From NCBI RefSeq assembly GCF_004362045.1, contig NZ_SNWX01000012.1, forward strand, positions 1-64,000: a DNA stretch of 64,000 nucleotides, in the 5' to 3' direction. Within the stretch, counting starts at the first letter, position 1. Every line of letters begins with the position of its first letter. The notes under the pieces were generated by a model. It saw nothing but the letters and a program-made list of their open reading frames with translations. It did no database searches and was not told where the DNA came from. Shown in pieces: positions 5,249 to 25,996 of the stretch. Source of the stretch: Halanaerobium saccharolyticum. Lineage in GTDB: Bacteria > Bacillota > Halanaerobiia > Halanaerobiales > Halanaerobiaceae. The position numbers and the translations under genes were made by a program.

Positions 5249-5250
5249 TA

Positions 5251-7268: not shown

Positions 7269-7270
7269 TT

Positions 7271-8293: not shown

Positions 8294-9053
8294 ATACCAT
8301 CAGCGTTTGATCTGGATTACAGTTCTGGCTCTGATCTGGCAGCTGACAGCTTTGAGTGGTATTTTTTCAGAAATGATATTTCCCGGGCTGGATCACATTT
8401 TTCTGGCTTTGATTGAATCGTTCAAAGATGGAACATTAGTTAAACAGATAATATTTTCTCTTTCAATTATCATTCAGGGATTATTTCTAGCTACAGCAGC
8501 AGCTTTGATTTTAGCACTATCCTCATATTTTTCTGAAAGTGCGGCTGGTTTAATTGATACTTTAACTGCTCTGGCCCATCCACTGCCGGGAATTGCATTG
8601 ATGCCCTTAATTTTAATCTGGTTTGGTTCTGGTAGAACTGCAATTTTAATTGTCATCATTCATTCCGTCTTATGGCCTTTAATTTTAAATTTGAGCACAG
8701 GTTTTAACTCTATTCCAGATATTTACACTTTAATTGCTGAAAATTATCGCTTAAATAAATTAGAATTCATGTTTAAAATATTAATACCAGCTTCACTTCC
8801 TTATTTTATTTCCGGTTTAAAAATAGCCTGGGCCAGATCCTGGCGGGCCTTAATTAGTGCAGAAATGCTTTTTGGTGCAATCAACAGTCTGGGAGGACTG
8901 GGCTGGTTTATTTTCCAGAAACGGGTCTTTTTCGATCTGCCGGGTGTATTTGCAGGTATTATAGTTATTATAGTTATTGGAGTTACAGTTGAAGATTTTA
9001 TTTTCAAAAAAATAGAAATAAGAACAGTGAAAAAATGGGGTATGTTGAAATGA
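8283..9053 (+). CDS. ABC importer permease (SsuC/TauC-like)
   Basis: A membrane permease of 256 residues with about six hydrophobic helices. The cytoplasmic coupling (EAA) loop is present around NYRLNKLEFMFKILIPASLP. The ATG at 8283 is preferred to one at 8250 because AGAGGAG lies 10 bases upstream; the gene overlaps the binding-protein stop by 11 bases. Family BPD_transp_1 of the nitrate/sulfonate/taurine group. Partner of the flanking binding protein and ATPase. Confidence 0.85.
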   Translation: MGNKYHQRLIWITVLALIWQLTALSGIFSEMIFPGLDHIFLALIESFKDGTLVKQIIFSLSIIIQGLFLATAAALILALSSYFSESAAGLIDTLTALAHPLPGIALMPLILIWFGSGRTAILIVIIHSVLWPLILNLSTGFNSIPDIYTLIAENYRLNKLEFMFKILIPASLPYFISGLKIAWARSWRALISAEMLFGAINSLGGLGWFIFQKRVFFDLPGVFAGIIVIIVIGVTVEDFIFKKIEIRTVKKWGMLK

Positions 9054-9817
9054 ACTCCTATTTGGAATTAAAAAGTATAAATAAGAGTTTTGAGACAGAA
9101 AAAAGAAGAAAAGCTGCTTTAAAAAATATTAATCTTCAGATTAAAGAAAATGAGTTTATTACTATCTTAGGTCCTTCTGGATGTGGAAAATCAACTTTAC
9201 TTAAAATAATTGCCGGTTTTAGCAGAGCAGACAGTGGGCAGCTGTTAAAAAACAAAGCACAGATTGAAAAGGCGGGATTGGATAGAATTATGCTTTTTCA
9301 GGAGTTTGAGCAGCTTTTTCCCTGGCAGAAAGTTATTGAGAATGTAACTTTTGCAGTTAAGGCAGCAGCCAAAAATAAAAAGAATAAATTATCTAAAGCA
9401 GCAATAAAAAAGAAAGCTTTAAAATATTTAAGTGAAGTAAAGCTTGAAAATTATCAGGACTATTATCCCCATCAGCTTTCTGGTGGGATGAAACAGCGCG
9501 TAGCTCTGGCAAGGACATTAGCTGCAGAAGGAGAAATTATGCTGATGGATGAGCCTTTTGGCAGTGTAGATAGCCAGACAAGACAGGAACTGCAGCAGCT
9601 CTTAACTCAGCTCTGGCAGGAAGAAGATAGAACAATTATTTTTGTGACTCATGATATCAGAGAGGCAGTTTTTCTTTCAGAACGGATAGTGCTCATGAAA
9701 AATGAACCTGGAGAAATTATAAAGGTAGTAGAAAATAAGATGCCTTATCCCCGTAGACTCAGCAGCAGAGAATTTAATCAGCTTTTTGAACAGCTCCAGG
9801 GTCAGCTTTATAATTAA
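9050..9817 (+). CDS. ABC importer ATPase (SsuB/TauB-like)
   Basis: A 255-residue ABC ATPase: Walker A GPSGCGKST at about 42-50, Q-loop LFQEFEQLFPWQ, signature LSGGMKQRVALAR, Walker B EIMLMDEPFGSVD and switch VTHD. It is placed at ATG 9050, giving the ATGA overlap with the permease stop; ATG 9035 is a possible longer start. Its last 44 bases overlap the 3' end of the convergent glycosyltransferase gene. No terminator is seen in the overlap. Confidence 0.88.
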   Translation: MNSYLELKSINKSFETEKRRKAALKNINLQIKENEFITILGPSGCGKSTLLKIIAGFSRADSGQLLKNKAQIEKAGLDRIMLFQEFEQLFPWQKVIENVTFAVKAAAKNKKNKLSKAAIKKKALKYLSEVKLENYQDYYPHQLSGGMKQRVALARTLAAEGEIMLMDEPFGSVDSQTRQELQQLLTQLWQEEDRTIIFVTHDIREAVFLSERIVLMKNEPGEIIKVVENKMPYPRRLSSREFNQLFEQLQGQLYN

Positions 9818-11396
9818 CTTTATAGATTTTAACTGACCAATTTTTCTGACCAATTTTTCTAACAATTCTCATTGCATAAGTAGAGCTGCTGAATGTTTTG
9901 ATCAGCTCAGTTTTTTGATCTAAAAACTCCTGCATTTCAGAGTAATAGGGATAAAGATTGCCGTAGAGAATATTCCAGGTAGGACGGCTGTTGTATATAA
10001 AGTCCATTTCTTCTGGATAAATTATATATTCAATTTCATTTTTGACTATATATTGGGAAAAAGAAAGATTGTTCTTTTCTAAGTAGTCCAGATTTCGGTA
10101 ATCAAAAAGACTGCCGTTTTTAAAATAATAATCTGTGTTTAAATTTGCCAGTACCCGAGTCTCCTGTGGTACCACCTCCGCAATTTGCTGCAGATATTCT
10201 TGATAATTGTAGTGACTGTCATTAAATACTGTGATGCCAGTGTTCAAGCTTAAAATAATCGCTATAATTGTTAGTAAAGTTATACCTTGCTTTAACTTTA
10301 TATCTTTAATTAAATTTATAAAAAGAAGATAAGCAAGAGGAAAAATAAAAATAATAGAGGTTTGATTATATCTTCCAATAATTAAATAGCCTAAATTTAT
10401 GGCAAACAAGCTCAAAAGTAAATAAAGATTGATTCTGTCTTTTTTAAAAATGGTTTTCACCAGAGAAGCAAAAGTAACTACAGCAAAAAATAGGAGCTGA
10501 AATTTAATAGGTGGAATATAATAAGTGCCGCTGATTCTGTAAAATAATTTTAGATAGAAATTTTTTAGATTTTCTAGCTTGATTAAAAATGAGTCCAGAA
10601 CTCCTAATCCTGCTCCATAACTGCTGTAATTGTTAATAAATTCAGGATCAAATTGAAAACTTAGATAAATGAAAAGGCCTGCAATAAGTGCTAAAGTTCC
10701 TCCAAAGCTGATATAATTTTTGAAAGTAGTTTTTTTGTTAAAAATCAAATTCCAGCTGTAGATTATAATTAAAGGTAAAGCAATAATAAATGCATTTGGA
10801 TGAAATCCAATAGCTGTGCCCAGAATAACTCCCAGAAAAATATCATTTTTAATTGAATTTCCTGATTTTGTATTTAAGTAAGATCTCTTAGTGTTTTTAT
10901 AATCAACTTTTTTTAGAAAATAGTAAAGAGCATTCAGCAAAAATAGAATCAAAATTATTTCCTGACGGGCAATGTGAGAGCTATATATAAAGTGAATATC
11001 AACTGCTAGGATAATTAGAGATCCCAGACTTAAAATCTTATTTTTAGTAATTAAATAAGAGATTTTATAAAAAGCAAAAAGACTCAGGCTTCCTGTCAGC
11101 AGAGAAATCAGACGAAAAGTAAAGATTCGATAATTAAAAATTTTGATAAAAATAATCTGCAGCAGATGGAAAAAAACTTTAACTGCATGAGGGTGACGTG
11201 GAAGCAGATCAAAGAATGCTTCAGTGCTGGCTAAATTTCCAGTTTCCATAATCTGTCTGGAAAGTCCACTGAGCCAGGCTTCATCAGAGTGGATAAAAGG
11301 AAAATTATTAAGAAAAAATAGGTTTATAAGAAAGAAAATTATAATTAGATGCCAGGCTTTAATTTTCTCAAATTTATTTTTTAATAAACAATCCAT
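9774..11396 (-). CDS. Membrane glycosyltransferase (PMT/ArnT-like, GT-C fold)
   Basis: A 540-residue polytopic membrane protein with roughly ten hydrophobic segments. The first extracytoplasmic loop holds HSDEAWLSGLSRQIMETG, the acidic motif of GT-C enzymes such as ArnT and protein mannosyltransferases, followed by RHPHAVKVFFH. Such enzymes move a sugar from a lipid carrier to lipid, protein or glycan outside the membrane. It could use the lipid-linked sugar made by the block upstream. Start supported by AAGGAGT. A 13-base tandem duplication lies near the 3' end, which overlaps the ABC ATPase gene. Confidence 0.78.
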   Translation of the reverse strand: MDCLLKNKFEKIKAWHLIIIFFLINLFFLNNFPFIHSDEAWLSGLSRQIMETGNLASTEAFFDLLPRHPHAVKVFFHLLQIIFIKIFNYRIFTFRLISLLTGSLSLFAFYKISYLITKNKILSLGSLIILAVDIHFIYSSHIARQEIILILFLLNALYYFLKKVDYKNTKRSYLNTKSGNSIKNDIFLGVILGTAIGFHPNAFIIALPLIIIYSWNLIFNKKTTFKNYISFGGTLALIAGLFIYLSFQFDPEFINNYSSYGAGLGVLDSFLIKLENLKNFYLKLFYRISGTYYIPPIKFQLLFFAVVTFASLVKTIFKKDRINLYLLLSLFAINLGYLIIGRYNQTSIIFIFPLAYLLFINLIKDIKLKQGITLLTIIAIILSLNTGITVFNDSHYNYQEYLQQIAEVVPQETRVLANLNTDYYFKNGSLFDYRNLDYLEKNNLSFSQYIVKNEIEYIIYPEEMDFIYNSRPTWNILYGNLYPYYSEMQEFLDQKTELIKTFSSSTYAMRIVRKIGQKNWSVKIYKVNYKADPGAVQKAD

Positions 11397-11640
11397 AGCA
11401 AGACTCCTTAAAATTTTTTTGATTAAGATTATTATAGCATAGATATCTGTTATATTTAAATATATGCATTAAAATTAGAGAATAGTCATCAATACATTTA
11501 ACCAGAAGGATTTTAAATCTGGGCTCATTTGATAATTGAATGTACTATTAGTAAATGTTATAACCATAAAGGGATAATATGTTTTATAATATTAATAGAG
11601 ATTGTTCCAATTTTAACAATATAAATTTGGAGGTGGAAAA

Positions 11641-12561
11641 ATGAAAAAAACAGCAAAGATATTATTTATTTTATTAGCTTTTGCGATTATTCTCACAGGC
11701 TGTGAAGCAGATATATCTGTACCCGGAGAAGTGGGTCAGGATATAGTCACAGCAGATGAAGCTCTTAAAATGATTGAAGCAGAAGAGATAATTGTAGTGG
11801 ATGCTCAAAAATCTGGAAATTTTGAAGATCAACATTTAGATGGAGCAGTAAATATTGCTAGAAATGATATCACAACTTTTGGACCTTATCCCAATATGCT
11901 GGCAGATGCATCTAAAGTGGAGTCTTCTTTAGGTGATAATGGCATCTCTAATCAATCAAAGGTACTTATCTATGATAATAACAATAATATGGATGCAGCC
12001 CGCTTATGGTGGACAATGCTGGTTTATGGGCATCACACTGACAATATGAAGGTTATAAGTGGTGGATTAAATGCTTTAAAAGATGCTGGTGCAGATTTTG
12101 TTTCTGGTGAATATGAAGCTGAAGCTGTAGAATACATAGCGGCCGAAAAGAATGAGGATTTAATTGCTACTAAAGAAGAAGTGCTGGCCGAGGTTAATGA
12201 TCCTGGTGAGAATGTTGAAATTTTAGATGTAAGAACTGCAGGAGAAGTTAGTAAAGGAATTATTCCTGGAGCTATTCATATTAATTATGTAGAAAATAAT
12301 AAGGAAAATGGAGAATTTTATCCACCAAGTTATATTCAGAGATATTATCCTGATAATGATATAACACCAGATGAAGAAGTTATTATGTACTGTCAGACTT
12401 CAATTAGAGCTGCTCAGAGCTATATAGCTTTACATAATGCTGGTTATAGAGGTTTAAAACTTTATGATGGTGCCTGGATTGAATGGTCATCAGATAGTTC
12501 TACACCAAAGGCAGTGCCAACTGGAGCCCCTGTAGAGCCTAGTGTTCAGGATGGTTCTTAA
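11641..12561 (+). CDS. Rhodanese-like lipoprotein (two domains)
   Basis: A 306-residue sulfurtransferase. The signal segment ends in the lipobox ILTGC (Cys 21). Two rhodanese domains follow: residues about 40-155, where the active-site Cys position is Asp 112 (IYDNNNNMDAARLWW), so this half is inactive; and about 165-285 with the loop CQTSIRA (Cys 251). One inactive plus one active domain is the TST/SseA arrangement, moving sulfane sulfur from thiosulfate or mercaptopyruvate to an acceptor, here outside the membrane. Start supported by GGAGGTGG. It probably acts with the sulfur genes downstream. Confidence 0.88.
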   Translation: MKKTAKILFILLAFAIILTGCEADISVPGEVGQDIVTADEALKMIEAEEIIVVDAQKSGNFEDQHLDGAVNIARNDITTFGPYPNMLADASKVESSLGDNGISNQSKVLIYDNNNNMDAARLWWTMLVYGHHTDNMKVISGGLNALKDAGADFVSGEYEAEAVEYIAAEKNEDLIATKEEVLAEVNDPGENVEILDVRTAGEVSKGIIPGAIHINYVENNKENGEFYPPSYIQRYYPDNDITPDEEVIMYCQTSIRAAQSYIALHNAGYRGLKLYDGAWIEWSSDSSTPKAVPTGAPVEPSVQDGS

Positions 12562-12580
12562 AAATTTTCAGTATTATGCT

Positions 12581-12628
12581 AAATAAAAGTAGAAGGGTTC
12601 TCGACTAATGTTGAGAACTTTTATTTAA
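12581..12628 (+). terminator. Rho-independent terminator after the rhodanese lipoprotein
   Basis: GTTCTC (12597-12602) pairs with GAGAAC (12613-12618) around a ten-base loop, and AAATAAAAG upstream pairs with the TTTTATTT that follows, leaving a bulge on the 5' side. It separates the two rhodanese genes into two transcripts. Confidence 0.7.
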
Positions 12629-12716
12629 AAGAGTTTGTGAAATATATTCTTATGTATTTTATTTTTATAATTTAATTAAGCTCAATTATTTACCAAAAAA
12701 ATTAGGAGGAATAAGA

Positions 12717-13619
12717 ATGAGAAAAAGAAGAATTTTATTATCAATGGCGCTAGTGGTTATGGCTTTACTGGTAGTTTCAACATCAGCTTTTGCAGTTACA
12801 GATGCAGTAGAGGATGCAGTTAATGATTATTTTGCAAATCTTCCCTCAGATAATGCAATGATTGGACAGGAAGCTTTTGTAGAAAAGGTAAAAGCTGGAG
12901 AAGACCTTTTTGTTTTAGATATTAGACAGCCTGATGTTTATAATGAAGGGCACATTAAAGGTGCAGTTAATATTCCCTGGGGTCCAGAAGCAATTCCAGC
13001 TGCTTTAGATAAGTTACCTGGAGACGAAACAATTTATGTTTACTGCTATACAGCTCAGACTGCAAATCAGACAGTTGCTTTATTAAACTTTGCCGGTTTT
13101 GAAGCTAAATCAGTTAAATTTGGCTGGAACCTTGGTATTGCCAGAGTTGATGGTTATGAGGAAGCTGTTGAAACAGAAGCAAATGAACTTACTGGAACAA
13201 CAGATTATGAGATCAATGCTGACATAAAAGCTGCAATTGAGGATTACTATGCAGGTTTAGCAGATGTTAGTGATACAATGTATAAAAACTATAAGATTTC
13301 TGAAGATATGTTAAAAATGGCTTTGGATTCTGATGCAGATATGATGGTGGTATCTATCAGACAGCCAGGAGATTTTGCTGAAGGACATATTGAAGGAGCA
13401 GTTAATATCCCCTGGGGTGCTGGAATGGAGCAGTATTTCGGTCAACTTCCACAGGATCAGAAATTAGTTGTTTACTGTTATACAGGCCAGACTGCAGGTC
13501 AGGCAGTAGCAGGTTTAAGAATGTTAGGTTATGATGCTGTATCACTTAATGGAGGTATGGGTACTCCTGCTAATGAGCCTTATGGTTGGTCTAACAAAGG
13601 TTATGAAGTAGTTCAGTAA
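12717..13619 (+). CDS. Secreted double-rhodanese protein
   Basis: A 300-residue protein with a Sec signal peptide (RKRRILL then a hydrophobic core, cleavage likely after AFA at 26) and no lipobox. Two similar rhodanese domains follow, each with an active-site loop: CYTAQTA (Cys 110) and CYTGQTA (Cys 254). The halves share ILDIRQP/VSIRQP, EGHIxGAVNIPWG and YCYT segments, so they arose by internal duplication; unlike TST, both keep the Cys. It is expected to trap or transfer sulfane sulfur in the wall space. Start supported by TTAGGAGGA. Confidence 0.88.
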   Translation: MRKRRILLSMALVVMALLVVSTSAFAVTDAVEDAVNDYFANLPSDNAMIGQEAFVEKVKAGEDLFVLDIRQPDVYNEGHIKGAVNIPWGPEAIPAALDKLPGDETIYVYCYTAQTANQTVALLNFAGFEAKSVKFGWNLGIARVDGYEEAVETEANELTGTTDYEINADIKAAIEDYYAGLADVSDTMYKNYKISEDMLKMALDSDADMMVVSIRQPGDFAEGHIEGAVNIPWGAGMEQYFGQLPQDQKLVVYCYTGQTAGQAVAGLRMLGYDAVSLNGGMGTPANEPYGWSNKGYEVVQ

Positions 13620-13672
13620 GAGATTATTAAGTTGAAATAATTAATAGTAAAAGTGATAGACATATATACAAA

Positions 13673-13702
13673 AAAGGAGCCCAACTGGGCTCCTTTACTT
13701 TT
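13673..13702. terminator. Bidirectional terminator
   Basis: A perfect ten-base stem, AAAGGAGCCC (13673-13682) with GGGCTCCTTT (13687-13696), has loop AACT. ACTTTTT follows on the plus strand and the A-rich left flank gives a T-run on the minus strand. It serves both the rhodanese gene and the convergent ABC operon. Confidence 0.88.
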
Positions 13703-13748
13703 TGCTAATAATTTTATTTAAATAAACCTATTATTTTTGATATAAAGT

Positions 13749-14543
13749 TTAATCAATTTGGTTATGAATAATGTCCATAATTTCATTTTTAACTTCGAAA
13801 TAATCTTCATTATAAATTACTTCTTTACTTCCTTTTTCGAAAATCTGATTGGTGAAATCTACATTAAATATTTTTATTATTTCTCCTGGCTGGCTGGACA
13901 TTACTACAACTCTATTGGCAAGTAAAAGAGCCTCATCCACATCGTGGGTAATAAAAAAGATTGTAGTATTATTTTCTTCCCAGATATTGCGGATTAAGTT
14001 CTGCATATTTTCTCTGGTTAAAGCATCCAGAGCACCAAAGGGCTCATCCATCAAGACAACCTGTGGATAATTTGCCAGGACTCGGGCAATAGCAACCCGC
14101 TGTTTCATTCCACCGGATAATTCGAAGGTATAATTTCCACCAATCCCGCTCAAATTTACCTCATCTAAGAAATATTCTCGAATATCTTTGATTTCAGCCT
14201 TCGGTAAATTACGCATTTTAGGACCAAATTCAACATTTTCATTGACCGTCATCCAGGGATAAAGAGTAGGAGACTGAAAGACTACTCCTCTATGCCAGTC
14301 AGGTCCATCGACTTCTTCACCATGCATTAAAACCCTGCCAGATGTAGGTTTAACATAACCGGCAATACATTTAAGCAGAGAACTTTTTCCACAGCCAGAG
14401 GGCCCTAAAACACAGATGAATTCCCCTTTGTTAATTTCTAAGTCAATATTTTTTAGAGCCAGAGTAGAGTTGATACTTTCTCCATATTCTAAGCTCATAT
14501 TTTCAATTTTAATTAAGCTCTCTTTTTTTTCTTGAGCAGACAT
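13749..14543 (-). CDS. Sulfonate/taurine-type ABC importer ATPase
   Basis: A 264-residue ABC ATPase: Walker A GPSGCGKSS, Q-loop VFQSPTLYPW, signature LSGGMKQRVAIAR, Walker B VVLMDEPFGALD and switch ITHDVDEA. It matches the SsuB/TauB group. Last gene of a permease-lipoprotein-ATPase operon; start supported by AGGAAAGGA. Its place between rhodanese genes and a CoA-disulfide reductase/YeeE pair suggests a sulfur-containing substrate, but nitrate- and bicarbonate-type importers look alike. Confidence 0.88.
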   Translation of the reverse strand: MSAQEKKESLIKIENMSLEYGESINSTLALKNIDLEINKGEFICVLGPSGCGKSSLLKCIAGYVKPTSGRVLMHGEEVDGPDWHRGVVFQSPTLYPWMTVNENVEFGPKMRNLPKAEIKDIREYFLDEVNLSGIGGNYTFELSGGMKQRVAIARVLANYPQVVLMDEPFGALDALTRENMQNLIRNIWEENNTTIFFITHDVDEALLLANRVVVMSSQPGEIIKIFNVDFTNQIFEKGSKEVIYNEDYFEVKNEIMDIIHNQID

Positions 14544-14584
14544 AAAATATATCCTTTCCTGATTAACTATAGATATCTATTGAA

Positions 14585-15670
14585 TTAGTTATTTTGATCA
14601 TTTTTTAATGACATTTTAATATATTCTGGATTCACATATTCATTAAAAGCTTCCCGTGAAGGAGATTCTTCAATAGAATTCTGAGCCTGAAGGAAGTCAG
14701 AAGTATCTTTCATTACCTGAGCAAAGTTTCCCGGCTCATCTACTGTACCAAAGAAATCTTCACTTAAAAGTTCTTTTCTAGTTTTCCAGGTTGTACCCCG
14801 CATCTGATTGAGAGCTACTCCAGCTTCAATTCCTAATTTGCTCCCGGCAATTTCAGCAGCTCTTTCAGGATTATTTCTATAAATATCTCCTGCTTCACTC
14901 ATTGCAGATATAAAATCAGCAACTAATTGGGGATACTCTTCTGCAAAGTCTTTGCGGACAACTTCTACATTTGCTGTGATATAACCTTTATCAGCCATTT
15001 CTTTACTATCAGTTAAAGTAGAACCACTTTTTAAGAGCTGTGCTAGAGTCGGCTGCCAGGTATAAGCTGCTTTAATGTCACCGCGTTCCCAGGCTGCAAC
15101 AATCTCAGCAGTCTGCATATCCAGGAGCTGAACTTCTTCTTCAATTCCTGCTTCTTTTAGTACATTTAAAAGAATATAATGCGCTGTAGAAGCAAAGGGG
15201 ACGGCAACTCTTTCTCCTGCAAGATCTTTTATGGTTTTGAATCCAGAACCATTTTTTACTGCCAGAGCTTCATTTTCCCCCAGTACTTCGTGGATCCAGA
15301 TCAGCTCAACATTTAATTCTCTTGCCAGGGCAGTGATTGCATTTGTATTACCCATGGTAGCAAAGTCAATACTGCCTGAGGCAAGTGCCTGATTTGCTTC
15401 AGCACCTGAGTCGAAAACTATGGTATTGACTTTAATACCTTTATCTCCAAAATATTTTTTAAAATAACCTTTTGCAATTGCTATAGTTTCATCATTTGGC
15501 ACTCTTAAAATACCAAAATTAATCTCAGCAGGTAGTGATTTTTTATCCGTAGTACTTTCTGCAGTAGAATTAGTATTTTGAGCCTGGTCTCCACTACAGG
15601 CAGAAAGGGTCAAAACTGCTGCTGTGATTAATAAAATAAATACAATTTTTTTGTAATGTTTTTTTATCAT
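14585..15670 (-). CDS. Sulfonate/taurine-type ABC substrate-binding lipoprotein
   Basis: A 361-residue binding protein with a lipobox LSAC (Cys 25) and a Ser/Thr/Asn-rich linker. The body (INFGILRVPNDETIAIAKGYF, GSIDFATMGNTNAITALA, VAVPFASTAHYILLNVL) is the SsuA/NMT1 fold for aliphatic sulfonates, taurine or nitrate. GGAGG lies nine bases before the ATG. Its gene follows the permease, so the order is permease, binding protein, ATPase. Confidence 0.87.
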   Translation of the reverse strand: MIKKHYKKIVFILLITAAVLTLSACSGDQAQNTNSTAESTTDKKSLPAEINFGILRVPNDETIAIAKGYFKKYFGDKGIKVNTIVFDSGAEANQALASGSIDFATMGNTNAITALARELNVELIWIHEVLGENEALAVKNGSGFKTIKDLAGERVAVPFASTAHYILLNVLKEAGIEEEVQLLDMQTAEIVAAWERGDIKAAYTWQPTLAQLLKSGSTLTDSKEMADKGYITANVEVVRKDFAEEYPQLVADFISAMSEAGDIYRNNPERAAEIAGSKLGIEAGVALNQMRGTTWKTRKELLSEDFFGTVDEPGNFAQVMKDTSDFLQAQNSIEESPSREAFNEYVNPEYIKMSLKNDQNN

Positions 15671-15708
15671 TTTTTTGCCTCCATCTATATTTGTAAAAGT
15701 ATTATTTA

Positions 15709-16572
15709 TTAAATATGTCCTTTCCAGAATATCAATCTTCGTTCTATAAATCTTAAAACAGCATCAATTATTACTCCTGTGATTCCCATAATTATAATTC
15801 CAACAAAAATAACTTCACTCTTCAAAAAGTTAGAGGCATCTAAAACCATCCAGCCAATACCTGAAGTTGCAGCAACCATCTCAGCAGAAACAAGTGTTGT
15901 ATAAGCAACCCCAAAAGCAGTCCTGACACCGGTAAAAATTTCTGGAAGCGAAGCAGGAAGTACAATTTTGAAAAAAACATTTTTCTGGTTTGCTCCCAGT
16001 GATTTAGCACTTAAAACAAAATCTTGATTTAATTTTCTAACAGCAGAAACACAGGCAATATAAATTGGAGCAAAGGCTGCTAAAAATAAAAGCACCTGTT
16101 TAGAGGTATCATCAATCCCAAACCAGAGCACTAAAAGTGTATAATACGCCAGAGGTGGAAGTGGTCGATAAAACTCAACCACAGAGTCAATTACTGCTTC
16201 TACTTTATCAAAATAGCCACTTAAAAGTCCGAGTGGAACTGCAGTAAAAATAGCAAAAAAAAGTGCTACAAATAAGCGTTTAAAACTGGCTCCCAGATGA
16301 ACCCATAAAGGTACATCATTATAACCGTTTGCTAAAATATCCAGGAATGCTCTCCAGACTCTTGCTGGACCTGGCAGTAGAGTAGGAGTGAAGATATTCA
16401 ATTTAGTAATAACATACCATAAAAAAAAGATAAAACCCCAGGTTAAAAAAGTTAGTGTTTTTTCTGTTTTATTCTTTTTATTTTTAGGTGTTTTCCTGCT
16501 TATATTTTGATTAGTAGTTTGAACCGCTGAGTTAGCAACCTTATTATCTTCCTCATTATTGTTTAAAGCCAT
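15709..16572 (-). CDS. Sulfonate/taurine-type ABC importer permease
   Basis: A 287-residue membrane permease with a long charged N-terminal tail (about 35 residues, Asn/Lys-rich) before six hydrophobic helices. The EAA coupling loop is near SLGANQKNVFFKIVLPASLPEIF. First gene of the operon; AAGGA precedes the ATG. The terminator of the upstream CoA-disulfide reductase unit lies in the gap before it, so this operon needs its own promoter, which was not identified. Confidence 0.87.
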   Translation of the reverse strand: MALNNNEEDNKVANSAVQTTNQNISRKTPKNKKNKTEKTLTFLTWGFIFFLWYVITKLNIFTPTLLPGPARVWRAFLDILANGYNDVPLWVHLGASFKRLFVALFFAIFTAVPLGLLSGYFDKVEAVIDSVVEFYRPLPPLAYYTLLVLWFGIDDTSKQVLLFLAAFAPIYIACVSAVRKLNQDFVLSAKSLGANQKNVFFKIVLPASLPEIFTGVRTAFGVAYTTLVSAEMVAATSGIGWMVLDASNFLKSEVIFVGIIIMGITGVIIDAVLRFIERRLIFWKGHI

Positions 16573-16683
16573 TCTTTACACGTCCTTATAATTATCGCAA
16601 TCTTTTTGAACATAAGTTATCTACTGTTATCAAAGATATCATATTTACTGTAATTTATCAATTTGAAGTCCCTGATTAATGTT

Positions 16684-16715
16684 TAAAAAGACCACCAAGT
16701 TTAACCCTGATGGCC
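16684..16715 (-). terminator. Terminator of the yeeE-CoA-disulfide reductase unit
   Basis: On the minus strand GGCCATCA pairs with TGGTGGTC (two G-U pairs) across a nine-base loop and is followed by TTTTTAAAC. It lies about 110 bases after the reductase stop codon and before the ABC permease gene. Confidence 0.65.
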
Positions 16716-16823
16716 TGATTTATTTGAATATATATTTTATGAAATTCATTTGAAACAGGCAATCTATATTGTACTGGTGAGCGACCGTAAATTTTACTCT
16801 GGCTGCTGTTTTAGATCTTTTTT

Positions 16824-18521
16824 TTACTCGAAATTATATTCAGTCACAATTTTATTGCGATTAGTGGTTTGATCTAAGAAATATTCGTAAAAGCAGATAC
16901 CTAAGAAAGATCCAGAAACATTAATTACATTATCATAACCTCTGCCCTGAAGTGCAAGACAGGCATTATAACTTCTCTGTCCTGAACGGCAGTGTAAGTA
17001 AACAGGTCTATCTTTAGGAATCTCATCAGTTCTTTCTCTTAACTCACTTAAAGGAATATTAATTGAATTGATTAAATGTCCAGCTTCATATTCATCCTCT
17101 TCTCGAACATCTACTATAAAGGCATCATTTTCTACTAATTCTCTAACCTTAGTTACAGGTATTTGATTATAACGATTATTTATTATATTTGTTGCTACAA
17201 GAGATGCCTGATTAACCGCATTTCTTGGAGTTGAGAAGAGAGGTGCATAAGCAAGCTCTGATTCTGTTAAATCTTCAACTGTTGCATCCATTAGGATTGA
17301 AGTTGCCATAACATCAATTCTTTTGTCTACATTACCTTTACCTACAGCTTGAGCACCAAGAATCTTACCTGTTGGTACTTCATATAATAATTTAAAATGT
17401 AAAGGATTAGCTTCTGGCATCAAACTTACTTTATCTGTTGGTATTATATAAACAAAATCATAGGAAATGCCGGCATCTTTAAGCTGTTTTTCGTTCAGTC
17501 CAGTTGCTGCTGCATTGTAATCAAAAGCTCTAATGACTGAGGTTCCAATTACCCCATTATTTTTATTTGGAATATTGTAGATGTGATTTGCTGCAGCTCT
17601 TGCCTGTCTCTGAGCTGGACCAGCAAGTGGTAATCTTGTCTTAGAACGGGCAATTTTAGAATAAACCTCAATTACATCTCCAACTGCATAGATATCGGGG
17701 TCACTGGTTACATAATTATGATTTACTTCAATTCCGCCTGTTTCTCCAATTTTAAGTCCAGCAGCTTCAGCTAATTCTGTTTCTGGACTCACACCAATTG
17801 CTAAAACAACTGCTTCAGCATCAATTTTTTTGCCTGATTTTAAAACAATATGATCTTCATTAACAGCAGTTAGTGGATCTGATAGAACCACATTTACTCC
17901 ATTATCATGAAGTTCTTTTTGTATAATTTGAGCCATATCAAAATCAAAGGGCTGTAATACCTGTTCCAGAGCTTCAATTAAAGCTACATTTTTATTTGTA
18001 TTAATAAAGTTTTCAGCAATTTCAACACCGATATATCCAGCACCAATCACTGCAACATTTTCTACATTATTATTATCAACATATCTATTTAATTTATCAA
18101 TATCGACTACGTTTCTGATTGTAAATACATTATCGTTATTTACACCTTTAATACTCTGAGGTCTAATTGGGTTGGCCCCAGGCGAAAGAACTAGTTTATC
18201 ATAATTTTCAGTGTATACTTCACCGGTCTCTAAGTCTTTAACTTCAACAGTTTTTTCGTATCTATTAATTCTTGTAACTTCATTTTTAACTCTGGCGTCA
18301 ATATTATACTGTTCAGCAAACTTAGAAGGGCACATTAAAACTAAATCATCACAATCTCTAACAATTCCACTCAAGTGATAAGGAAGTGAACAGTTTGAAA
18401 AAGAAACATGGGATCCGCGTTCAAACATAATTACTTCTGCGTCTTCATCCAGCCTTCTTACTCTGGCAGCTGTACCAGCACCACCAGCAACTCCTCCAAC
18501 AACTAAAATCTTTTTACTCAT
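16824..18521 (-). CDS. CoA-disulfide reductase with C-terminal rhodanese domain
   Basis: A 565-residue flavoprotein. The FAD motif GGVAGGAGTAARVRRL is at 9-24 and the single redox Cys is in SFSNCSLPYH (Cys 44), the hallmark of CoA-disulfide reductases. A second dinucleotide fold (VIGAGYIGVEIAE) and a dimer domain follow. From about residue 460 there is a rhodanese domain with the loop HCRSGQRS. This fusion (CoADR-Rhd) reduces CoA persulfides or polysulfide with NAD(P)H. It could release sulfide from the sulfane sulfur carried by the nearby rhodaneses. Start supported by GGAGGAA. Confidence 0.92.
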   Translation of the reverse strand: MSKKILVVGGVAGGAGTAARVRRLDEDAEVIMFERGSHVSFSNCSLPYHLSGIVRDCDDLVLMCPSKFAEQYNIDARVKNEVTRINRYEKTVEVKDLETGEVYTENYDKLVLSPGANPIRPQSIKGVNNDNVFTIRNVVDIDKLNRYVDNNNVENVAVIGAGYIGVEIAENFINTNKNVALIEALEQVLQPFDFDMAQIIQKELHDNGVNVVLSDPLTAVNEDHIVLKSGKKIDAEAVVLAIGVSPETELAEAAGLKIGETGGIEVNHNYVTSDPDIYAVGDVIEVYSKIARSKTRLPLAGPAQRQARAAANHIYNIPNKNNGVIGTSVIRAFDYNAAATGLNEKQLKDAGISYDFVYIIPTDKVSLMPEANPLHFKLLYEVPTGKILGAQAVGKGNVDKRIDVMATSILMDATVEDLTESELAYAPLFSTPRNAVNQASLVATNIINNRYNQIPVTKVRELVENDAFIVDVREEDEYEAGHLINSINIPLSELRERTDEIPKDRPVYLHCRSGQRSYNACLALQGRGYDNVINVSGSFLGICFYEYFLDQTTNRNKIVTEYNFE

Positions 18522-18610
18522 ATCTTATTCCTCCTGTGAATTTTGTATTATAAATCACTGCTTTAGCTAGGATGGAACTATAGCCTGGAACAGTATATTA
18601 CTTGCTAAGT

Positions 18611-19870
18611 CTAATAAATTTTTTCACTGAACTTATTACTAATTACTCCTCCGATAATCATGAAAACCAGGAATATCCAGCCTGAGAGTGAGAAGTTAGA
18701 TATTGGAGTATATAAGGCTCCAACATTACAACCTTGAGCTAATCGAGTACCAAACCCCATTGTTAAACCACCAAGGGCATACATTACTCCTTGTTTTTTT
18801 GTTATATGCAGTTCAGAATTAAAGAATTCCATAAACTTACCTGCAGTTAAAAGATAAATAATTGCTCCGACTAAAATACCAAAGTTCTGGACAGAAATTT
18901 GATGCTCAAAAAAAGGTGTAGAAAATGAACTTGCAGATAGCTTAGTGAATTCTGCCAGACTTTCTGCAGAAACTCCAAATAACATTAAGATTTTCCCAAA
19001 CCAGATACCATATGGCTGTGAAACTCCCCAACCATATCCGGTTACTCCCATCATAATTGTTACAATTACAGCTAATGCAATTCCACCCTGCTTTAATGTC
19101 CAGGGTTTTTCAAATAAGTGATAATATGTATCAGCACTGAATAATTTGAAATTTTTTAAATCCATTGGTTCTAAATTTCCCTGAATTCTTTCGATTTCAA
19201 GTCCCCTATATTCACCTGTTTTTTTCTTGTGTTTTTCATACATGTAAGAGAGGATAGTGAAAAGAAGACATAAGGCGCCGAGAGCAAGCAGACCTCCTAA
19301 ATAACCTTCAAAACCATCTCCCTGGAATAAATCCGGTAGAAAAACTCCTCCCATAGTTCTATAGCCAATATATGTGCTAAACCATGAATCTTGAACCCAG
19401 TTTGCAGTATACTGAATCGGAAAACCAATAAATACTCCAAACATAAAAAAAATGAGGGTTGTAAAAGCCCTGGGAAGTGCCTGTGGTAAGTCTGTCAGAA
19501 CTCCACTCGCACAGCAGACGGAAATAGACATTCCAAAACCAAATAAAAATCCTCCCAGCATTAAACCAATATTAATTGGTTTAATCCAGAGATTGTAGCT
19601 TGCTGGATCTTTGCCAAATAAAAAGGCTGTCATTAAAGTGGCGGTAATAAAAAACATAAACATAAGAGTTCTCATTAATTTAGTTGAACCAGTTCTATAA
19701 GCTCTGTTTACACTACCTGCAAAGCCAGTGTAAGCTCTTGCAAGAGCATATCCCAGTCCTGACCCGGCTAACAATCTAAAAAACAAAAGGTCTGTTTTTA
19801 GCCAGAACTTTGCTATTACTAAAATTATAATTACAGCTATTAATCCTAAAACTTTTTCAAATTTTTTCAT
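18611..19870 (-). CDS. YeeE/YedE-family transporter (thiosulfate/sulfur import)
   Basis: A 419-residue integral membrane protein with about ten helices in two repeats. The family's Cys-bearing motifs are seen: SVCCASGVLTDLPQA in the first half and GTRLAQGCNVGALYTPI in the second, as in thiosulfate importer TsuA. Co-transcribed with the CoA-disulfide reductase (89-base gap) and starting behind GAGGAGG. It is the likely entry point of thiosulfate for this block; selenium or other sulfur species have also been proposed for relatives. Confidence 0.87.
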   Translation of the reverse strand: MKKFEKVLGLIAVIIILVIAKFWLKTDLLFFRLLAGSGLGYALARAYTGFAGSVNRAYRTGSTKLMRTLMFMFFITATLMTAFLFGKDPASYNLWIKPINIGLMLGGFLFGFGMSISVCCASGVLTDLPQALPRAFTTLIFFMFGVFIGFPIQYTANWVQDSWFSTYIGYRTMGGVFLPDLFQGDGFEGYLGGLLALGALCLLFTILSYMYEKHKKKTGEYRGLEIERIQGNLEPMDLKNFKLFSADTYYHLFEKPWTLKQGGIALAVIVTIMMGVTGYGWGVSQPYGIWFGKILMLFGVSAESLAEFTKLSASSFSTPFFEHQISVQNFGILVGAIIYLLTAGKFMEFFNSELHITKKQGVMYALGGLTMGFGTRLAQGCNVGALYTPISNFSLSGWIFLVFMIIGGVISNKFSEKIY

Positions 19871-20093
19871 TAAAAAATTACCTCCTCATATTTTTTGAAT
19901 ATCAAATAACTTTGTTCTAAAATTCGCAAAACAGAATAAAAAAATAAAAAAAGTGCTGTTAATTTGAAATAAAAGTTATTTATAATATAATTCACAAGTT
20001 TCTACAATAATTATATACTATTTATTGATAATACTAAAATAATAATATCTTATGTTGGATAACTTTATGTTATGGATAGGAGAAAATTCTGAT

Positions 20094-20169: not shown

Positions 20170-22104
20170 ATGGATCATCAGAAAATGTTAGAGGACTTTA
20201 AAAAGAGATTCAAAATTTCTTTAGTTATAACGGTACCAATTTTAGCACTTTCACCTTTGATTCAGAGTTTTTTTGGCTACAGTTTTGAGTTTGCAGGCAG
20301 TCAGTATGTTCTATTTCTGCTTTCTACAGTTATTTTCTTTTATGGTGGCTGGCCATTCTTAAGTGGAATGAAAAATGAATTAGCTGATAAAACTCCGGGT
20401 ATGATGACTTTAATTGCTCTTGCAATTTCTGTCGCCTATTTTTACAGTTCAGCAGTTGTCTTTGGTCTGGAAGGTAGATTTTTCTTCTGGGAGCTGGCAA
20501 CTTTAATTGTAATTATGCTTTTAGGCCACTGGATTGAGATGCGCTCGGTTATGGGAGCCTCTAATGCTCTAGAAGAACTGGCAAAACTGATGCCGGATGA
20601 GGCCCATAAAATTGTTGATGGAGAAGTTAAAGAAATTAAAATAAAAGAGCTAAAAAAGGGAGATCAGATTTTAGTTAAACCGGGTGAGAAAATACCAGCT
20701 GATGGAGTAATTTACGAAGGAGACTCCTATATAGATGAATCAATGTTAACCGGAGAATCAGAACCGGTTGTAAGAGAAGTTGATGATGAAGTAATAGGTG
20801 GATCTGTTAATGGTGACAGCTCAATTAAAATTAGAATAGAAAAAGCTGGGGATGAGAGTTACCTGTCCCAGGTTATAGATCTGGTTAAAGAATCTCAGGC
20901 AGCTAAATCGAAGACTCAGAATTTTGCCGATCGAGCAGCTTTCTGGCTGACACTAATTGCTATTACAGCAGGAACAATTACTCTTTTTAGCTGGTACTTT
21001 ATTACCGGAGACTTAGCTTTTTCTATAGAGCGGATGGCAACAGTTATGGTTATCACCTGTCCCCATGCTTTAGGGCTTGCTATACCACTGGTGGTAGCTG
21101 TTTCCACAACTCTATCAGCTAAAAATGGACTGCTGATCCGTGATCGTACTGCTTTTGAAAATGCGCGTAAAATAGATACAGTTTTATTTGATAAAACAGG
21201 TACCCTGACTAAAGGAGAATTTGGAGTTGAAGCAGTAGAAAGTTTTGTGGATAAATATAATATGGAAGAGATTCTGCAGAAAGCAGCTTCTTTAGAACAG
21301 GAATCAGAACACCCAATTGCAGCTGGAATAGTAAAAAGAGCAGAAGAAGATGAAGTAGAACTGCTGAAAGTAGATGATTTTGAGATAATTAAAGGTAAAG
21401 GTGTTATCGGAAAAATTGAAGGCGGAGATTTTAAAGCTGTTTCTCCCGGTTATCTGAAAGAAAATAATATAGAAGTACCACAGGATGCTTTAAAAGAAGG
21501 TCCATTTACCGAAATCTTTATTTTAGAAGCTGGAAATTTAATTGGAATGGTTAGACTGGCCGATCAAATTAGAGAAAGCTCTTATGAGGCAGTACAAAAA
21601 CTTAAGGATAAAGGAATTAAGGTCAAAATGCTGACCGGAGATAATCAGAAAACTGCAGAATATGTAAGTAATGAACTTGGTCTAACTGATTTCTTTGCTG
21701 AAATTCTACCTGATGAGAAGCAGAAAAAAGTAGAAGAGCTGCAGGCTGAAGGTGCTTTTGTGGCGATGACTGGTGATGGTGTTAATGATGCACCAGCCCT
21801 GGCTAAAGCTGATATAGGGATTGCAATTGGCTCAGGTACAGATGTAGCTGCCGAAACAGCAGATATAATTCTGGTTGAAAGTGATCCGCTTGATGTGCTT
21901 AAGCTTATCGAGTTTGGCAGCTTAACTTATAAGAAGATGATTCAGAATTTATTCTGGGCTACAGGCTATAACGCTTTTGCAATACCACTGGCAGCAGGTG
22001 TACTGGCAGGGGTTGGAATTATGATTTCTCCAGCAGTTGGTGCAGTACTGATGTCGATGAGTACAGTGATTGTGGCGATCAATGCCAAGATGTTAAAGTT
22101 TTAA
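20170..22104 (+). CDS. copB: Copper/silver-type P1B ATPase (CopB-like, CPH motif)
   Basis: A 644-residue P-type ATPase without an N-terminal metal-binding domain. The membrane metal motif is CPHALGLAIP, characteristic of CopB (P1B-3) pumps. Other motifs: TGESEPV (actuator), DKTGTLTKGE (phosphorylated Asp), SEHPIA (HP locus) and MTGDGVNDAPALA. It should export copper or silver across the cell membrane. It is the first gene behind a CsoR-type operator and is followed by a strong terminator, so it forms a single-gene unit. Confidence 0.9.
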   Translation: MDHQKMLEDFKKRFKISLVITVPILALSPLIQSFFGYSFEFAGSQYVLFLLSTVIFFYGGWPFLSGMKNELADKTPGMMTLIALAISVAYFYSSAVVFGLEGRFFFWELATLIVIMLLGHWIEMRSVMGASNALEELAKLMPDEAHKIVDGEVKEIKIKELKKGDQILVKPGEKIPADGVIYEGDSYIDESMLTGESEPVVREVDDEVIGGSVNGDSSIKIRIEKAGDESYLSQVIDLVKESQAAKSKTQNFADRAAFWLTLIAITAGTITLFSWYFITGDLAFSIERMATVMVITCPHALGLAIPLVVAVSTTLSAKNGLLIRDRTAFENARKIDTVLFDKTGTLTKGEFGVEAVESFVDKYNMEEILQKAASLEQESEHPIAAGIVKRAEEDEVELLKVDDFEIIKGKGVIGKIEGGDFKAVSPGYLKENNIEVPQDALKEGPFTEIFILEAGNLIGMVRLADQIRESSYEAVQKLKDKGIKVKMLTGDNQKTAEYVSNELGLTDFFAEILPDEKQKKVEELQAEGAFVAMTGDGVNDAPALAKADIGIAIGSGTDVAAETADIILVESDPLDVLKLIEFGSLTYKKMIQNLFWATGYNAFAIPLAAGVLAGVGIMISPAVGAVLMSMSTVIVAINAKMLKF

Positions 22105-22179
22105 ATTTGATCTGAATATAAATTTATTAGTTGTTTTTTGAGGAAGCTAATTTCAAAATTAAATATTTATTGATTATAA

Positions 22180-22232
22180 CCTCAGCTAACTTCAGAATTA
22201 AATTTTTTTGAAGCTGGCTGAGGTCTTTTTTT
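22180..22232 (+). terminator. Terminator after the CopB-like gene
   Basis: CCTCAGC (22180-22186) pairs with GCTGAGG (22217-22223), with ACTTCA/TGAAG extending the stem inside, followed by a seven-base T-run. Confidence 0.85.
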
Positions 22233-22314
22233 GCAAAAAATGATTTATATCATAGCTGCCTTCCCTAAAAATAGTTATACTGGTGGTACAAAGAAATCAG
22301 GGAGGTTGTTTGAG

Positions 22315-24156
22315 ATGAAAAAGAAATTAAAAATAGTCACAATAGCAGGAATTTTAATTGCAATAGGCTGGTTAAGTAATTTATTAAATTTTGATCCACT
22401 AATTTTTAATACATCGATGGTGGCGGCAGCTATTATTGCCGGGTATCAGGTAGCTATCAATGCCTATAATACTTTAAAGATGAAAGTGATCAGTATTAAT
22501 TTACTGGTAACAATAGCTGCTGTAGGGGCAGTTATTATTGGGGAATACTGGGAAGCTGCAGCAGTTACATTTTTGTTTGCTTTTGGTTCCTATTTAGAAA
22601 GCAGAACAGTAGGTAAAGCCAGAGATGCAATTAGAGACTTAATGGATCTGGCTCCCAATTTGGCTACAGTTATCAGGGAAGGAGAAGAAAAAGAGATTGC
22701 TGCAGAAAAAGTAGAGGTTGAAGAGGTAGTAATCGTCAGGCCGGGAGAAAAAATACCGGTTGATGGTACTGTAATTAAAGGTAAAAGTGAAGTCAACCAG
22801 GCAGCTATTACAGGGGAATCAATACCGGTCAGTAAAGAAAAAGGAGATGAAGTCTTCAGCGGCACTATAAATAAGAATGGTTATCTGGAAATTAAAACTG
22901 AAAAGGTTGGAGATGACACTACTTTTGGTAAAATAATAGAGCTGGTAGAAGAGGCCCAGGAAGAAAAAGCTCCTACTCAAAAATTAATGGAGCGTTTTTC
23001 TAAATATTATACACCCGGAATTATTTTGCTTTCACTTATTTCCTACTTTATTAGCGGTAGTGTCCGGCTTTCTCTAACCCTGCTTGTTATTGGCTGTCCG
23101 GGAGCACTGGTTATTTCAACTCCGATATCTATTGTAGCCGGAATTGGTAATGGAGCCAAAAATGGAATTTTGATCAAGGGAGGTGAGTACTTAGAAAAAT
23201 CAGGAGAAATCGATATGGTTGCCTTTGATAAAACTGGAACCTTAAGTAAAGGAGAAGCAGAAGTTAATCAGATAATAACTTATAACAAAAATGAAGCTGA
23301 AGTTTTAAGTCTGGCGGCAGCTGCTGAATTTAATTCTGAACATCACCTGGCCCGGGCCATCAAAAATAAAGCAGAAAAGACACTGGAAACAGAAATTAAA
23401 TCTCCAGTAAACTTTGAGACTCATACCGGAAAAGGAGTAACTGCTCAAATTGACAGTAAAAAAATTATGATCGGAAACAGCAGATTATTTAGGGAGCAGG
23501 GAATTGAAATCAGTCAGGAAATTGAAGAGCAAAAAAACCAGCTGGAAGCAGAGGGGAAAACAGTGGTTGTGGCAGCAGAAAATGATCAAATTATCGCCTT
23601 AATTTCCATTGCTGACAGACCTCGAGAAAATGCCTATCAGATTGTAGAGAAGCTAAAAAATGTAGGTATCAAAAAAGTAGTGATGTTAACTGGAGACAAT
23701 GAGCGAATAGCAGAATCAGTTGCTGATGAATTAAATCTTGATGGTTATAAAGCTGAATTACTGCCCGAAGATAAGGTAAAGGCGGTAGAAGAATATCAAA
23801 AAGAAGGTTATAAAGTGGCTATGGTAGGAGATGGAATCAATGATACACCTTCTCTGGTAACGGCTGATATTGGGATCGCAATGGGAGCAGCCGGTACAGA
23901 TGCTGCAATTGATACGGCGGATATTACTTTAATGGCAGATAACTTAAATAAACTGCCATATGCAATAGGACTCAGCAAAGCAGCTAATAGAAATATAAAA
24001 CAAAATGTAGTTTTTGCTGTTCTGATTGTTTTCGCTCTACTGGCAGGTGTTTTAGGTCAGAAAGTATTTCTAGCTTCTGGAATGCTGGTCCATGAGTTGA
24101 GTGTTTTAATAGTAATCTTTAATGCAATGCGCTTATTGAGATATGATACAGCATAA
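22315..24156 (+). CDS. Heavy-metal P1B ATPase with unusual CPG motif
   Basis: A 613-residue P-type ATPase of the CadA/ZntA kind by overall similarity, lacking an N-terminal metal-binding domain. TGESIPV, DKTGTLSKGE and GDGINDTPSL are normal. Two key sites differ: the membrane metal motif is CPGALVISTP instead of CPC, and the HP locus reads SEHHLA instead of SEHPLA. The substrate is therefore uncertain (zinc, cadmium or another ion). ATG 22315 is chosen for GGGAGG nine bases upstream; an ORF extension to 22231 would start within the terminator. A separate HMA-domain protein follows. Confidence 0.85.
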   Translation: MKKKLKIVTIAGILIAIGWLSNLLNFDPLIFNTSMVAAAIIAGYQVAINAYNTLKMKVISINLLVTIAAVGAVIIGEYWEAAAVTFLFAFGSYLESRTVGKARDAIRDLMDLAPNLATVIREGEEKEIAAEKVEVEEVVIVRPGEKIPVDGTVIKGKSEVNQAAITGESIPVSKEKGDEVFSGTINKNGYLEIKTEKVGDDTTFGKIIELVEEAQEEKAPTQKLMERFSKYYTPGIILLSLISYFISGSVRLSLTLLVIGCPGALVISTPISIVAGIGNGAKNGILIKGGEYLEKSGEIDMVAFDKTGTLSKGEAEVNQIITYNKNEAEVLSLAAAAEFNSEHHLARAIKNKAEKTLETEIKSPVNFETHTGKGVTAQIDSKKIMIGNSRLFREQGIEISQEIEEQKNQLEAEGKTVVVAAENDQIIALISIADRPRENAYQIVEKLKNVGIKKVVMLTGDNERIAESVADELNLDGYKAELLPEDKVKAVEEYQKEGYKVAMVGDGINDTPSLVTADIGIAMGAAGTDAAIDTADITLMADNLNKLPYAIGLSKAANRNIKQNVVFAVLIVFALLAGVLGQKVFLASGMLVHELSVLIVIFNAMRLLRYDTA

Positions 24157-24225
24157 AAAAATAATTTCAGTTTAATAATTTTTATTAAGAATAATTCAAA
24201 AAATATAATTTGGAGGTAGAAAATA

Positions 24226-24441: not shown

Positions 24442-24449
24442 ATAATAAA

Positions 24450-24522: not shown

Positions 24523-24541
24523 TATAACTAAGGGTGATAGT

Positions 24542-25210: not shown

Positions 25211-25235
25211 TTATCAATAAATATTTAAAATTATT

Positions 25236-25329: not shown

Positions 25330-25356
25330 ATAGAATCAAATTAAGGGGTTTTTATT

Positions 25357-25989: not shown

Positions 25990-25996
25990 TTTAATC

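What the first reader, a model, noticed from the sequence alone, without database searches (positions are those of the whole stretch)
11641..19870. Sulfur block with five rhodanese domains, CoA-disulfide reductase and YeeE
Two exported double-rhodanese proteins (one Cys-less domain), a CoADR-rhodanese fusion, a YeeE/YedE transporter and a sulfonate-type importer lie together. This suggests thiosulfate uptake, extracytoplasmic sulfane-sulfur transfer and NAD(P)H-linked sulfide release, the route suspected for rhodanese-dependent thiosulfate reduction in Halanaerobium.
Basis: partly seen in the sequence, partly recalled or inferred. Interest (0 to 1): 0.6.

Follow-up and report, generated by a model that had tools for sequence, protein, structure and literature searches.

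The report
Linked genes for thiosulfate-to-sulfide conversion
A salt-loving, fermenting bacterium (Halanaerobium) carries a conserved gene block that probably cuts thiosulfate outside the cell, brings the loose sulfur atom in and reduces it to sulfide with NAD(P)H, which would explain how such bacteria sour oil and gas wells without the usual thiosulfate or sulfite reductases.

Summary
It is two convergent units around a two-way terminator. In three genomes of other Halanaerobiales lineages the same seven genes form one same-strand run (in one, split over two contigs), so this is one system. RHD1 is a lipoprotein with one active Cys; RHD2 has a Sec signal and two; all catalytic Cys are invariant. 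Most block-bearing genomes (12 of 18) have no siroheme sulfite/nitrite reductase domain. H. praevalens, a published thiosulfate reducer with a closed genome, has the block but no sulfite reductase, no molybdopterin oxidoreductase, and no other catalytic-Cys rhodanese found except an MnmH-like protein. So the published rhodanese-plus-AsrABC route cannot be general; the sulfane route is the best candidate. The YedE/CoADR-Rhd core is widespread in Bacillota beside TauABC or an amino-acid permease, never both; the exported rhodanese pair was found beside it only in Halanaerobiales. The importer's substrate is unresolved; E. coli TauA's Gln30 and Asp205 are replaced. A new variant of the Thermotoga NSR/YeeE kind. 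No function was tested.

The parts
11641..12561 (+). RHD1: exported lipoprotein, tandem rhodanese; domain 1 Cys-less, domain 2 catalytic C251 in CQTSIR loop
   Evidence: PF00581 x2; lipobox C21 and C251 invariant in 17 orthologues; AlphaFold2 model pLDDT 83, best PDB matches Mycobacterium thiosulfate sulfurtransferases CysA2/CysA3, TM about 0.77
12717..13619 (+). RHD2: exported (Sec signal) tandem rhodanese with two catalytic Cys, C110 (CYTAQT) and C254 (CYTGQT)
   Evidence: PF00581 x2; both Cys invariant in 17 orthologues
13673..13696 (.). bidirectional intrinsic terminator between the two convergent units
   Evidence: 10-pair stem with T-rich tails on both strands; pattern match, not tested
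13749..14543 (-). TauB-like ABC ATPase
   Evidence: PRK11248 TauB 245 bits, under its cut-off
14585..15670 (-). TauA-like substrate-binding lipoprotein (C25); Leu-Arg at TauA Gln30/Thr31 and Asn at Asp205
   Evidence: TIGR01729 211 bits under cut-off 304; site comparison with E. coli TauA
15709..16572 (-). TauC-like permease
   Evidence: PRK10160 241 bits, under its cut-off
16824..18521 (-). CoA-disulfide/persulfide reductase fused to rhodanese; C44 and C511
   Evidence: PF07992, PF02852, PF00581; PDB relatives 3icr, 3nta, 8a56; both Cys invariant in 13 orthologues
18611..19870 (-). YedE-type two-repeat membrane transporter (C119/C120 and C381)
   Evidence: PF04143 162 bits; CCASG and GCNVG align with TsuA C91 and C293 motifs; no Cys at the TsuA C22 position (by eye)
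11557..11569 (+). GTTATnnnCATAA motif in the RHD1 promoter region
   Evidence: motif defined post hoc
20050..20063 (-). the same motif (GTTATnnnnCATAA) in the YedE promoter region
   Evidence: only two strict matches in the window, one per unit; 0.45 expected, but defined post hoc
11602..11619 (.). Rex-like inverted repeat TTGTTCCAATTTTAACAA just upstream of RHD1
   Evidence: conserved in genus alignment; Rex-type matches are not enriched in the window (20 vs 15.4 expected)

Best explanation
A sulfane-sulfur reduction system that turns the outer (sulfane) sulfur of thiosulfate into sulfide and disposes of fermentation electrons. Proposed steps: (1) the membrane-anchored lipoprotein RHD1 takes the sulfane sulfur from thiosulfate on C251 outside the cytoplasmic membrane, leaving sulfite outside (inferred); (2) RHD2, with two active Cys, relays persulfide sulfur to YedE (inferred); (3) YedE passes sulfane sulfur, or thiosulfate itself, through its paired Cys sites (inferred from YedE1E2 and TsuA); (4) the rhodanese domain of CoADR-Rhd accepts it and the flavoprotein, via CoA-persulfide and C44, reduces it to HS- with NAD(P)H (inferred from characterised relatives). 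The TauABC-like importer brings in a sulfonate-like sulfur compound, perhaps thiosulfate, as a second entry. Sulfite is exported or stays outside, or in Asr-bearing strains such as this one can also be reduced. Shown here: the genes, their Cys, predicted export, operon conservation and the absence of the classical enzymes. Not shown: any activity.
For: Seven-gene co-directional run RHD1-RHD2-YedE-CoADR-TauC-TauA-TauB in G021 and G005, and in G032 across two contigs; in Halanaerobium the rhodanese pair sits convergent to the rest. All catalytic Cys invariant. H. praevalens GSL-T (2,309,262 bp = G014; PMC3156398) is reported to reduce thiosulfate and have rhodanese activity; it has the block, no PF01077 siroheme domain, no PF00384 molybdopterin oxidoreductase, and its other rhodanese domains are a tandem paralogue with Ser at the catalytic Cys and one 355-aa MnmH-like protein. 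H. congolense DSM 11287 (thiosulfate and sulfur reducer) has the block (L060) but no AsrC. Acetomicrobium hydrogeniformans reduces thiosulfate by an unknown route (PMC6025917) and has the adjacent YedE/CoADR-Rhd pair (L070) and no siroheme reductase domain. G013, probably H. polyolivorans (size and contig count fit; about 90% protein identity to G011), which uses sulfur but not thiosulfate (PMC10536098), lacks the block. Thermotoga NSR reduces thiosulfate with NAD(P)H, boosted by CoA, and yeeE rises 42.6-fold on thiosulfate (PMC9431562).
Against: No expression or activity data. From general knowledge, the thiosulfate/(sulfide + sulfite) couple (about -400 mV) lies below NADH, so the reaction needs sulfite and sulfide kept low. 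No exported thiol carrier was identified. Phenotype agreement rests on a few species, and the G013 name is inferred. The exported rhodaneses are missing beside the YedE/CoADR core in all 37 loci outside the order, so they are not essential for that core's function. YedE-family members also carry selenium-linked or polysulfide roles.
Confidence: 0.6

Rival explanations
1. Published model: rhodaneses split thiosulfate to sulfur and sulfite, and AsrABC reduces the sulfite to sulfide; YedE and CoADR-Rhd are accessory or unrelated.
For: Proteomics of Halanaerobium WG8 found three rhodaneses and AsrA higher with thiosulfate (PMC5497025). This genome does have asrABC with an FNT channel and heme/siroheme genes next to it.
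Against: AsrC is over cut-off in only 5 of 38 order genomes and 4 of 18 block-bearing ones; 12 of 18 block genomes have no siroheme NIR_SIR domain, including the closed genome of thiosulfate-reducing H. praevalens.
Confidence: 0.15
2. The block handles a sulfane- or sulfonate-bearing amino compound (for example thiotaurine, S-sulfocysteine or cystine-type disulfides) rather than thiosulfate; YedE and CoADR-Rhd then reduce the released sulfur.
For: The importer slot beside YedE/CoADR-Rhd holds either TauABC (11 loci) or an APC amino-acid permease (15 loci), never both; the SBP keeps Glu106, Thr132 and the backbone sulfonate contacts of TauA. A. hydrogeniformans also reduces cysteine.
Against: TauA Asp205 and Gln30, which contribute strongly to taurine affinity, are replaced in all order members; known thiosulfate reducers carry the block.
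Confidence: 0.12
3. Sulfane-sulfur (persulfide, polysulfide or S0) detoxification and homeostasis, not an electron sink for thiosulfate.
For: YedE1E2 of other bacteria imports zero-valent sulfur and is often encoded with persulfide dioxygenase (PMC10812762); CoADR-Rhd relatives are persulfide reductases; metal ATPases lie next door.
Against: No persulfide dioxygenase or persulfide-sensing repressor in the block; G013 (probable S0 user) lacks the block, whereas thiosulfate users have it.
Confidence: 0.13

Closest known systems
Thermotoga maritima NSR (NAD(P)H-dependent, CoA-stimulated sulfur/thiosulfate reductase) with thiosulfate-induced yeeE (PMC9431562)
   Same: Cytoplasmic NAD(P)H flavoprotein reducing sulfane sulfur or thiosulfate plus a YeeE-family transporter; fermenter using it as electron sink
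   Different: There the transporter sits with dsrE/tusA genes and the passages read describe no exported rhodaneses or Tau-type importer; here the reductase bears a rhodanese domain and all genes are clustered
CoA-disulfide/persulfide reductases fused to rhodanese with solved structures (PDB 3icr, 3nta, 8a56)
   Same: Same domain order and both catalytic Cys
   Different: Here encoded with YedE and, in Halanaerobiales, exported rhodaneses; below the TIGR03385 equivalog cut-off
TsuA/YeeE thiosulfate transporter (PDB 6leo) and YedE1E2 zero-valent sulfur importer
   Same: PF04143, paired Cys motifs matching TsuA C91 and C293
   Different: No Cys at the TsuA C22 position, no TsuB/TusA partner gene in the block, far below TsuA model cut-offs
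Halanaerobium rhodanese + AsrABC model and RdlA (Ravot 2005; PMC5497025)
   Same: Rhodanese-dependent thiosulfate reduction in the same genus

Membership tests
Rhodanese (PF00581) sulfurtransferases | Rhodanese fold with catalytic Cys in the active-site loop | tested here: met
   Five domains over cut-off, four with Cys; RHD1 model matches thiosulfate sulfurtransferases
Rhodanese (PF00581) sulfurtransferases | Loop-end Arg, Thr or Ser linked to thiosulfate cleavage (PMC8533005) | tested here: met
   CQTSIR, CYTAQT, CYTGQT, CRSGQR
Rhodanese (PF00581) sulfurtransferases | Thiosulfate:acceptor sulfurtransferase activity | not testable with these tools
   needs enzyme assay
CoA-disulfide reductase (TIGR03385) | Score above the equivalog cut-off (578.8 bits) | tested here: not met
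   440.7 bits, though nearly full-length; treated as CoADR-like
CoADR-rhodanese persulfide reductases | Flavoprotein domain with active Cys plus C-terminal rhodanese with Cys | tested here: met
   C44 and C511 invariant; structure relatives over nearly the full length
TsuA thiosulfate transporter | NCBIfam TsuA cut-offs | tested here: not met
   41 and 25 bits against 400 and 645
YeeE/YedE (PF04143) | Full-length two-repeat Sulf_transp domain with the two essential Cys | tested here: met
   162 bits, positions 2-310 of 310; C119/C120 and C381
Taurine ABC importer TauABC | TauA ligand residues Q30, E106, T132, D205 and equivalog score | tested here: not met
   Q30 to L, D205 to N; 211 bits under 304
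PhsABC/PsrABC thiosulfate/polysulfide reductase | Molybdopterin catalytic subunit (PF00384) | tested here: not met
   No match at 1e-10 in this genome or G014
Rhodanese + AsrABC pathway | asrABC present with the rhodaneses | tested here: inconclusive
   Present in this genome but AsrC absent in most block-bearing genomes

The most novel reading that the evidence does not exclude
A thiosulfate reduction pathway that needs neither molybdenum, haem nor siroheme: an exported rhodanese relay splits thiosulfate outside, a YedE channel imports only the sulfane atom, and CoADR-Rhd reduces it with NAD(P)H, leaving sulfite outside. Its YedE/CoADR-Rhd core is spread through Bacillota and some Synergistota and would account for many 'thiosulfate reducers of unknown pathway'.
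Probability: 0.35. Interest if true: 0.75.

Novelty: new variant of a known kind. Interest (0 to 1): 0.55.

Why it matters
Rhodanese-linked thiosulfate reduction by halophilic fermenters sours and corrodes oil and gas wells, yet its enzymes are unsettled; the current rhodanese-plus-Asr model fails for a reference strain in which no siroheme sulfite reductase was found. This block gives a defined, testable seven-gene candidate, a marker for souring potential better than 'a rhodanese gene', and links it to a core found in other thiosulfate reducers whose route is unknown, such as Acetomicrobium.

Tried and rejected
No Rfam RNA in 1-30000 and no tRNA in the window. The YedE AlphaFold2 model failed (pLDDT 37) and was not used; the RHD1 model worked. 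Rex-type operator: one conserved site before RHD1, but such matches are not enriched; kept as a lead. Shared promoter motif: 9 of 15 YedE and 7 of 17 RHD1 upstream regions against 1 of 33 internal ones, about 0.03 expected per region, but defined post hoc and on related genomes (two of the seven RHD1 matches lie further upstream and look different). Selenium role for YedE: model score far under cut-off and no formate-dehydrogenase-type molybdoenzyme found in this genome. PhsABC and a dedicated Asr route considered and rejected as general answers. The upstream Ssu/Sao-like importer (7271-9817) is separated from the block by the 540-aa membrane-protein gene and is not counted as part of it. Literature searches for thiosulfate use by H. 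hydrogeniformans, Halothermothrix and Clostridium sulfidigenes gave nothing usable.
Full report
WHAT IS THERE. Every content claim of the finding checks out. Seven genes occupy 11641-19870. RHD1 (306 aa) and RHD2 (300 aa) are tandem rhodaneses; the 565-aa protein is a CoADR-like flavoprotein with a C-terminal rhodanese; the 419-aa protein is PF04143 over its full length; the rest is a Tau-like ABC importer. Five of the genome's 11 rhodanese domains lie here. RHD1 carries a lipobox and RHD2 a Sec-type signal, read by eye. RHD1 domain 1 has lost its Cys; the other four domains have Cys followed by a loop that ends in Arg or Thr, the feature reported to be needed for thiosulfate cleavage (PMC8533005). 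The host is a Halanaerobium: its YedE is 94% identical to that of H. saccharolyticum MSL 17.2.

ORGANISATION. Here the block is two convergent units with a two-way terminator between them. In G021 and G005, from other lineages of the order, the genes run RHD1-RHD2-YedE-CoADR-TauC-TauA-TauB on one strand; in G032 the same order is split over two contigs. So the association is old, and the Halanaerobium arrangement is probably a rearranged version. Both Halanaerobium promoter regions share a GTTAT(n3-4)CATAA element, which hints at co-regulation, but the motif was found post hoc.

CONSERVATION OF THE CHEMISTRY. Catalytic or paired cysteines are invariant across orthologues: C251 of RHD1, C110 and C254 of RHD2, C119, C120 and C381 of YedE, C44 and C511 of CoADR-Rhd. 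Outside the block this genome has a tandem rhodanese paralogue on C1 that has Ser in place of the catalytic Cys, as do the H. congolense and H. praevalens copies, an MnmH-like protein on C30 (named from its size and single rhodanese domain), and a C27 locus with a further rhodanese protein and a CoADR-Rhd-TusA-DsrE fusion.

WHICH CLASSICAL ENZYMES ARE MISSING. AsrC is over its cut-off in 5 of 38 order genomes. Of 18 genomes with the YedE/CoADR-Rhd pair at 60% identity or more, 4 have AsrC and 6 have any siroheme NIR_SIR domain. This genome does have asrABC beside an FNT channel and heme/siroheme-type genes, and a separate sulfite/nitrite-reductase-like protein with a TusA-like C-terminal stretch seen by eye. 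It has no PF00384 molybdopterin oxidoreductase match at 1e-10, so no PhsA or PsrA was found. The clearest case is G014, whose length of 2,309,262 bp equals the published H. praevalens GSL-T chromosome. That strain is reported positive for thiosulfate reduction and rhodanese activity. It has the block, no siroheme reductase domain and no PF00384 match. Of its eight rhodanese domains, five are in the block, two are in the Cys-less paralogue and one is in the MnmH-like protein.

PHENOTYPE AGREEMENT. H. congolense DSM 11287, described as thiosulfate- and sulfur-reducing (title cited), has the block and no AsrC. A. hydrogeniformans OS1 reduces thiosulfate, sulfur and cysteine by unknown pathways, has YedE and CoADR-Rhd side by side (L070) and no siroheme reductase domain. 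H. polyolivorans uses elemental sulfur but not thiosulfate; the genome that fits it, G013, lacks the block although it has eight other rhodanese domains. G013's identity is inferred from size, contig count and about 90% protein identity to G011. These are few data points, not a statistical test.

BEYOND THE ORDER. A scan of GTDB species genomes with the YedE alignment gave 53 loci. Of 37 outside Halanaerobiales, 30 have CoADR-Rhd close by on the same strand. Eleven have a TauA homologue within reach and 15 an APC amino-acid permease, none both; none has RHD1 or RHD2. So there is a widespread core (YedE + CoADR-Rhd, often with one importer), and the exported rhodanese pair is the part found only in Halanaerobiales. 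The peptide patterns used and contig ends make these lower bounds.

IMPORTER. The SBP keeps TauA's G61, G79, E106, T132 and W176, but has Leu-Arg in place of Q30-T31 and Asn in place of D205, in all 14 order members compared (residue roles from PMC6906117). The ligand is therefore probably sulfonate-like, but taurine specificity is not supported. Thiosulfate is plausible; an amino-sulfur compound cannot be excluded.

MECHANISM AND CONFIDENCE. I put 0.6 on a sulfane-sulfur (thiosulfate) reduction system. The order RHD1, RHD2, YedE, CoADR-Rhd is an inference from compartments and Cys; nothing here measures transfer. Thermotoga NSR and YeeE show that the cytoplasmic half is plausible in another fermenter (PMC9431562). 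Searches of the open literature found no description of this gene block, within a library that lacks most subscription journals.

VERDICT. Real, conserved and coherent. New variant of a known kind, interest 0.55, because it makes an open question directly testable.

Noticed in passing
L111 (G000 C7) 5206-8903: asrABC with an FNT-family channel just upstream and heme/siroheme-type genes downstream; possibly a sulfide or sulfite channel. AsrC is over cut-off in only 5 of 38 Halanaerobiales genomes.
   Followed up: partly
L110 (G000 C4) 2189-4543: 784-aa siroheme sulfite/nitrite-reductase-like protein with a C-terminal TusA-like stretch (seen by eye); H. congolense has an 811-aa relative.
   Followed up: partly
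L039 (G000 C27) 4957-10836: SLC13-like transporter, a rhodanese protein with a metallo-beta-lactamase-like start (by eye; shorter than the relatives' 468-470 aa frames) and a CoADR-Rhd-TusA-DsrE fusion: a second sulfur locus, related genes also in genomes without the block.
   Followed up: partly
L040 (G000 C1) 5896-6810, with L113 and L114: Exported tandem rhodanese conserved in the genus with Ser at the catalytic Cys and no Cys in domain 1: a pseudo-sulfurtransferase of unknown role.
   Followed up: partly
window 7271-9817: Second SsuABC/Sao-like ABC importer next to an ATP-grasp and sugar-type genes; synteny kept in several relatives.
   Followed up: no
window 20170-29930: Three metal P-type ATPases, a Crp-like regulator and a CsoR-like regulator beside the block; a CopB-type gene lies near YedE in several relatives.
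   Followed up: no
window 11602-11619: Rex-like inverted repeat just upstream of RHD1, conserved in the genus: possible NADH control.
   Followed up: partly
L038 16429-18059 and L042 8320-11209: Genomes with RHD1/RHD2 but a split YedE pair, in L042 followed by a thioredoxin reductase-like flavoprotein fused to thioredoxin: a possible alternative reductase for the same relay.
   Followed up: partly
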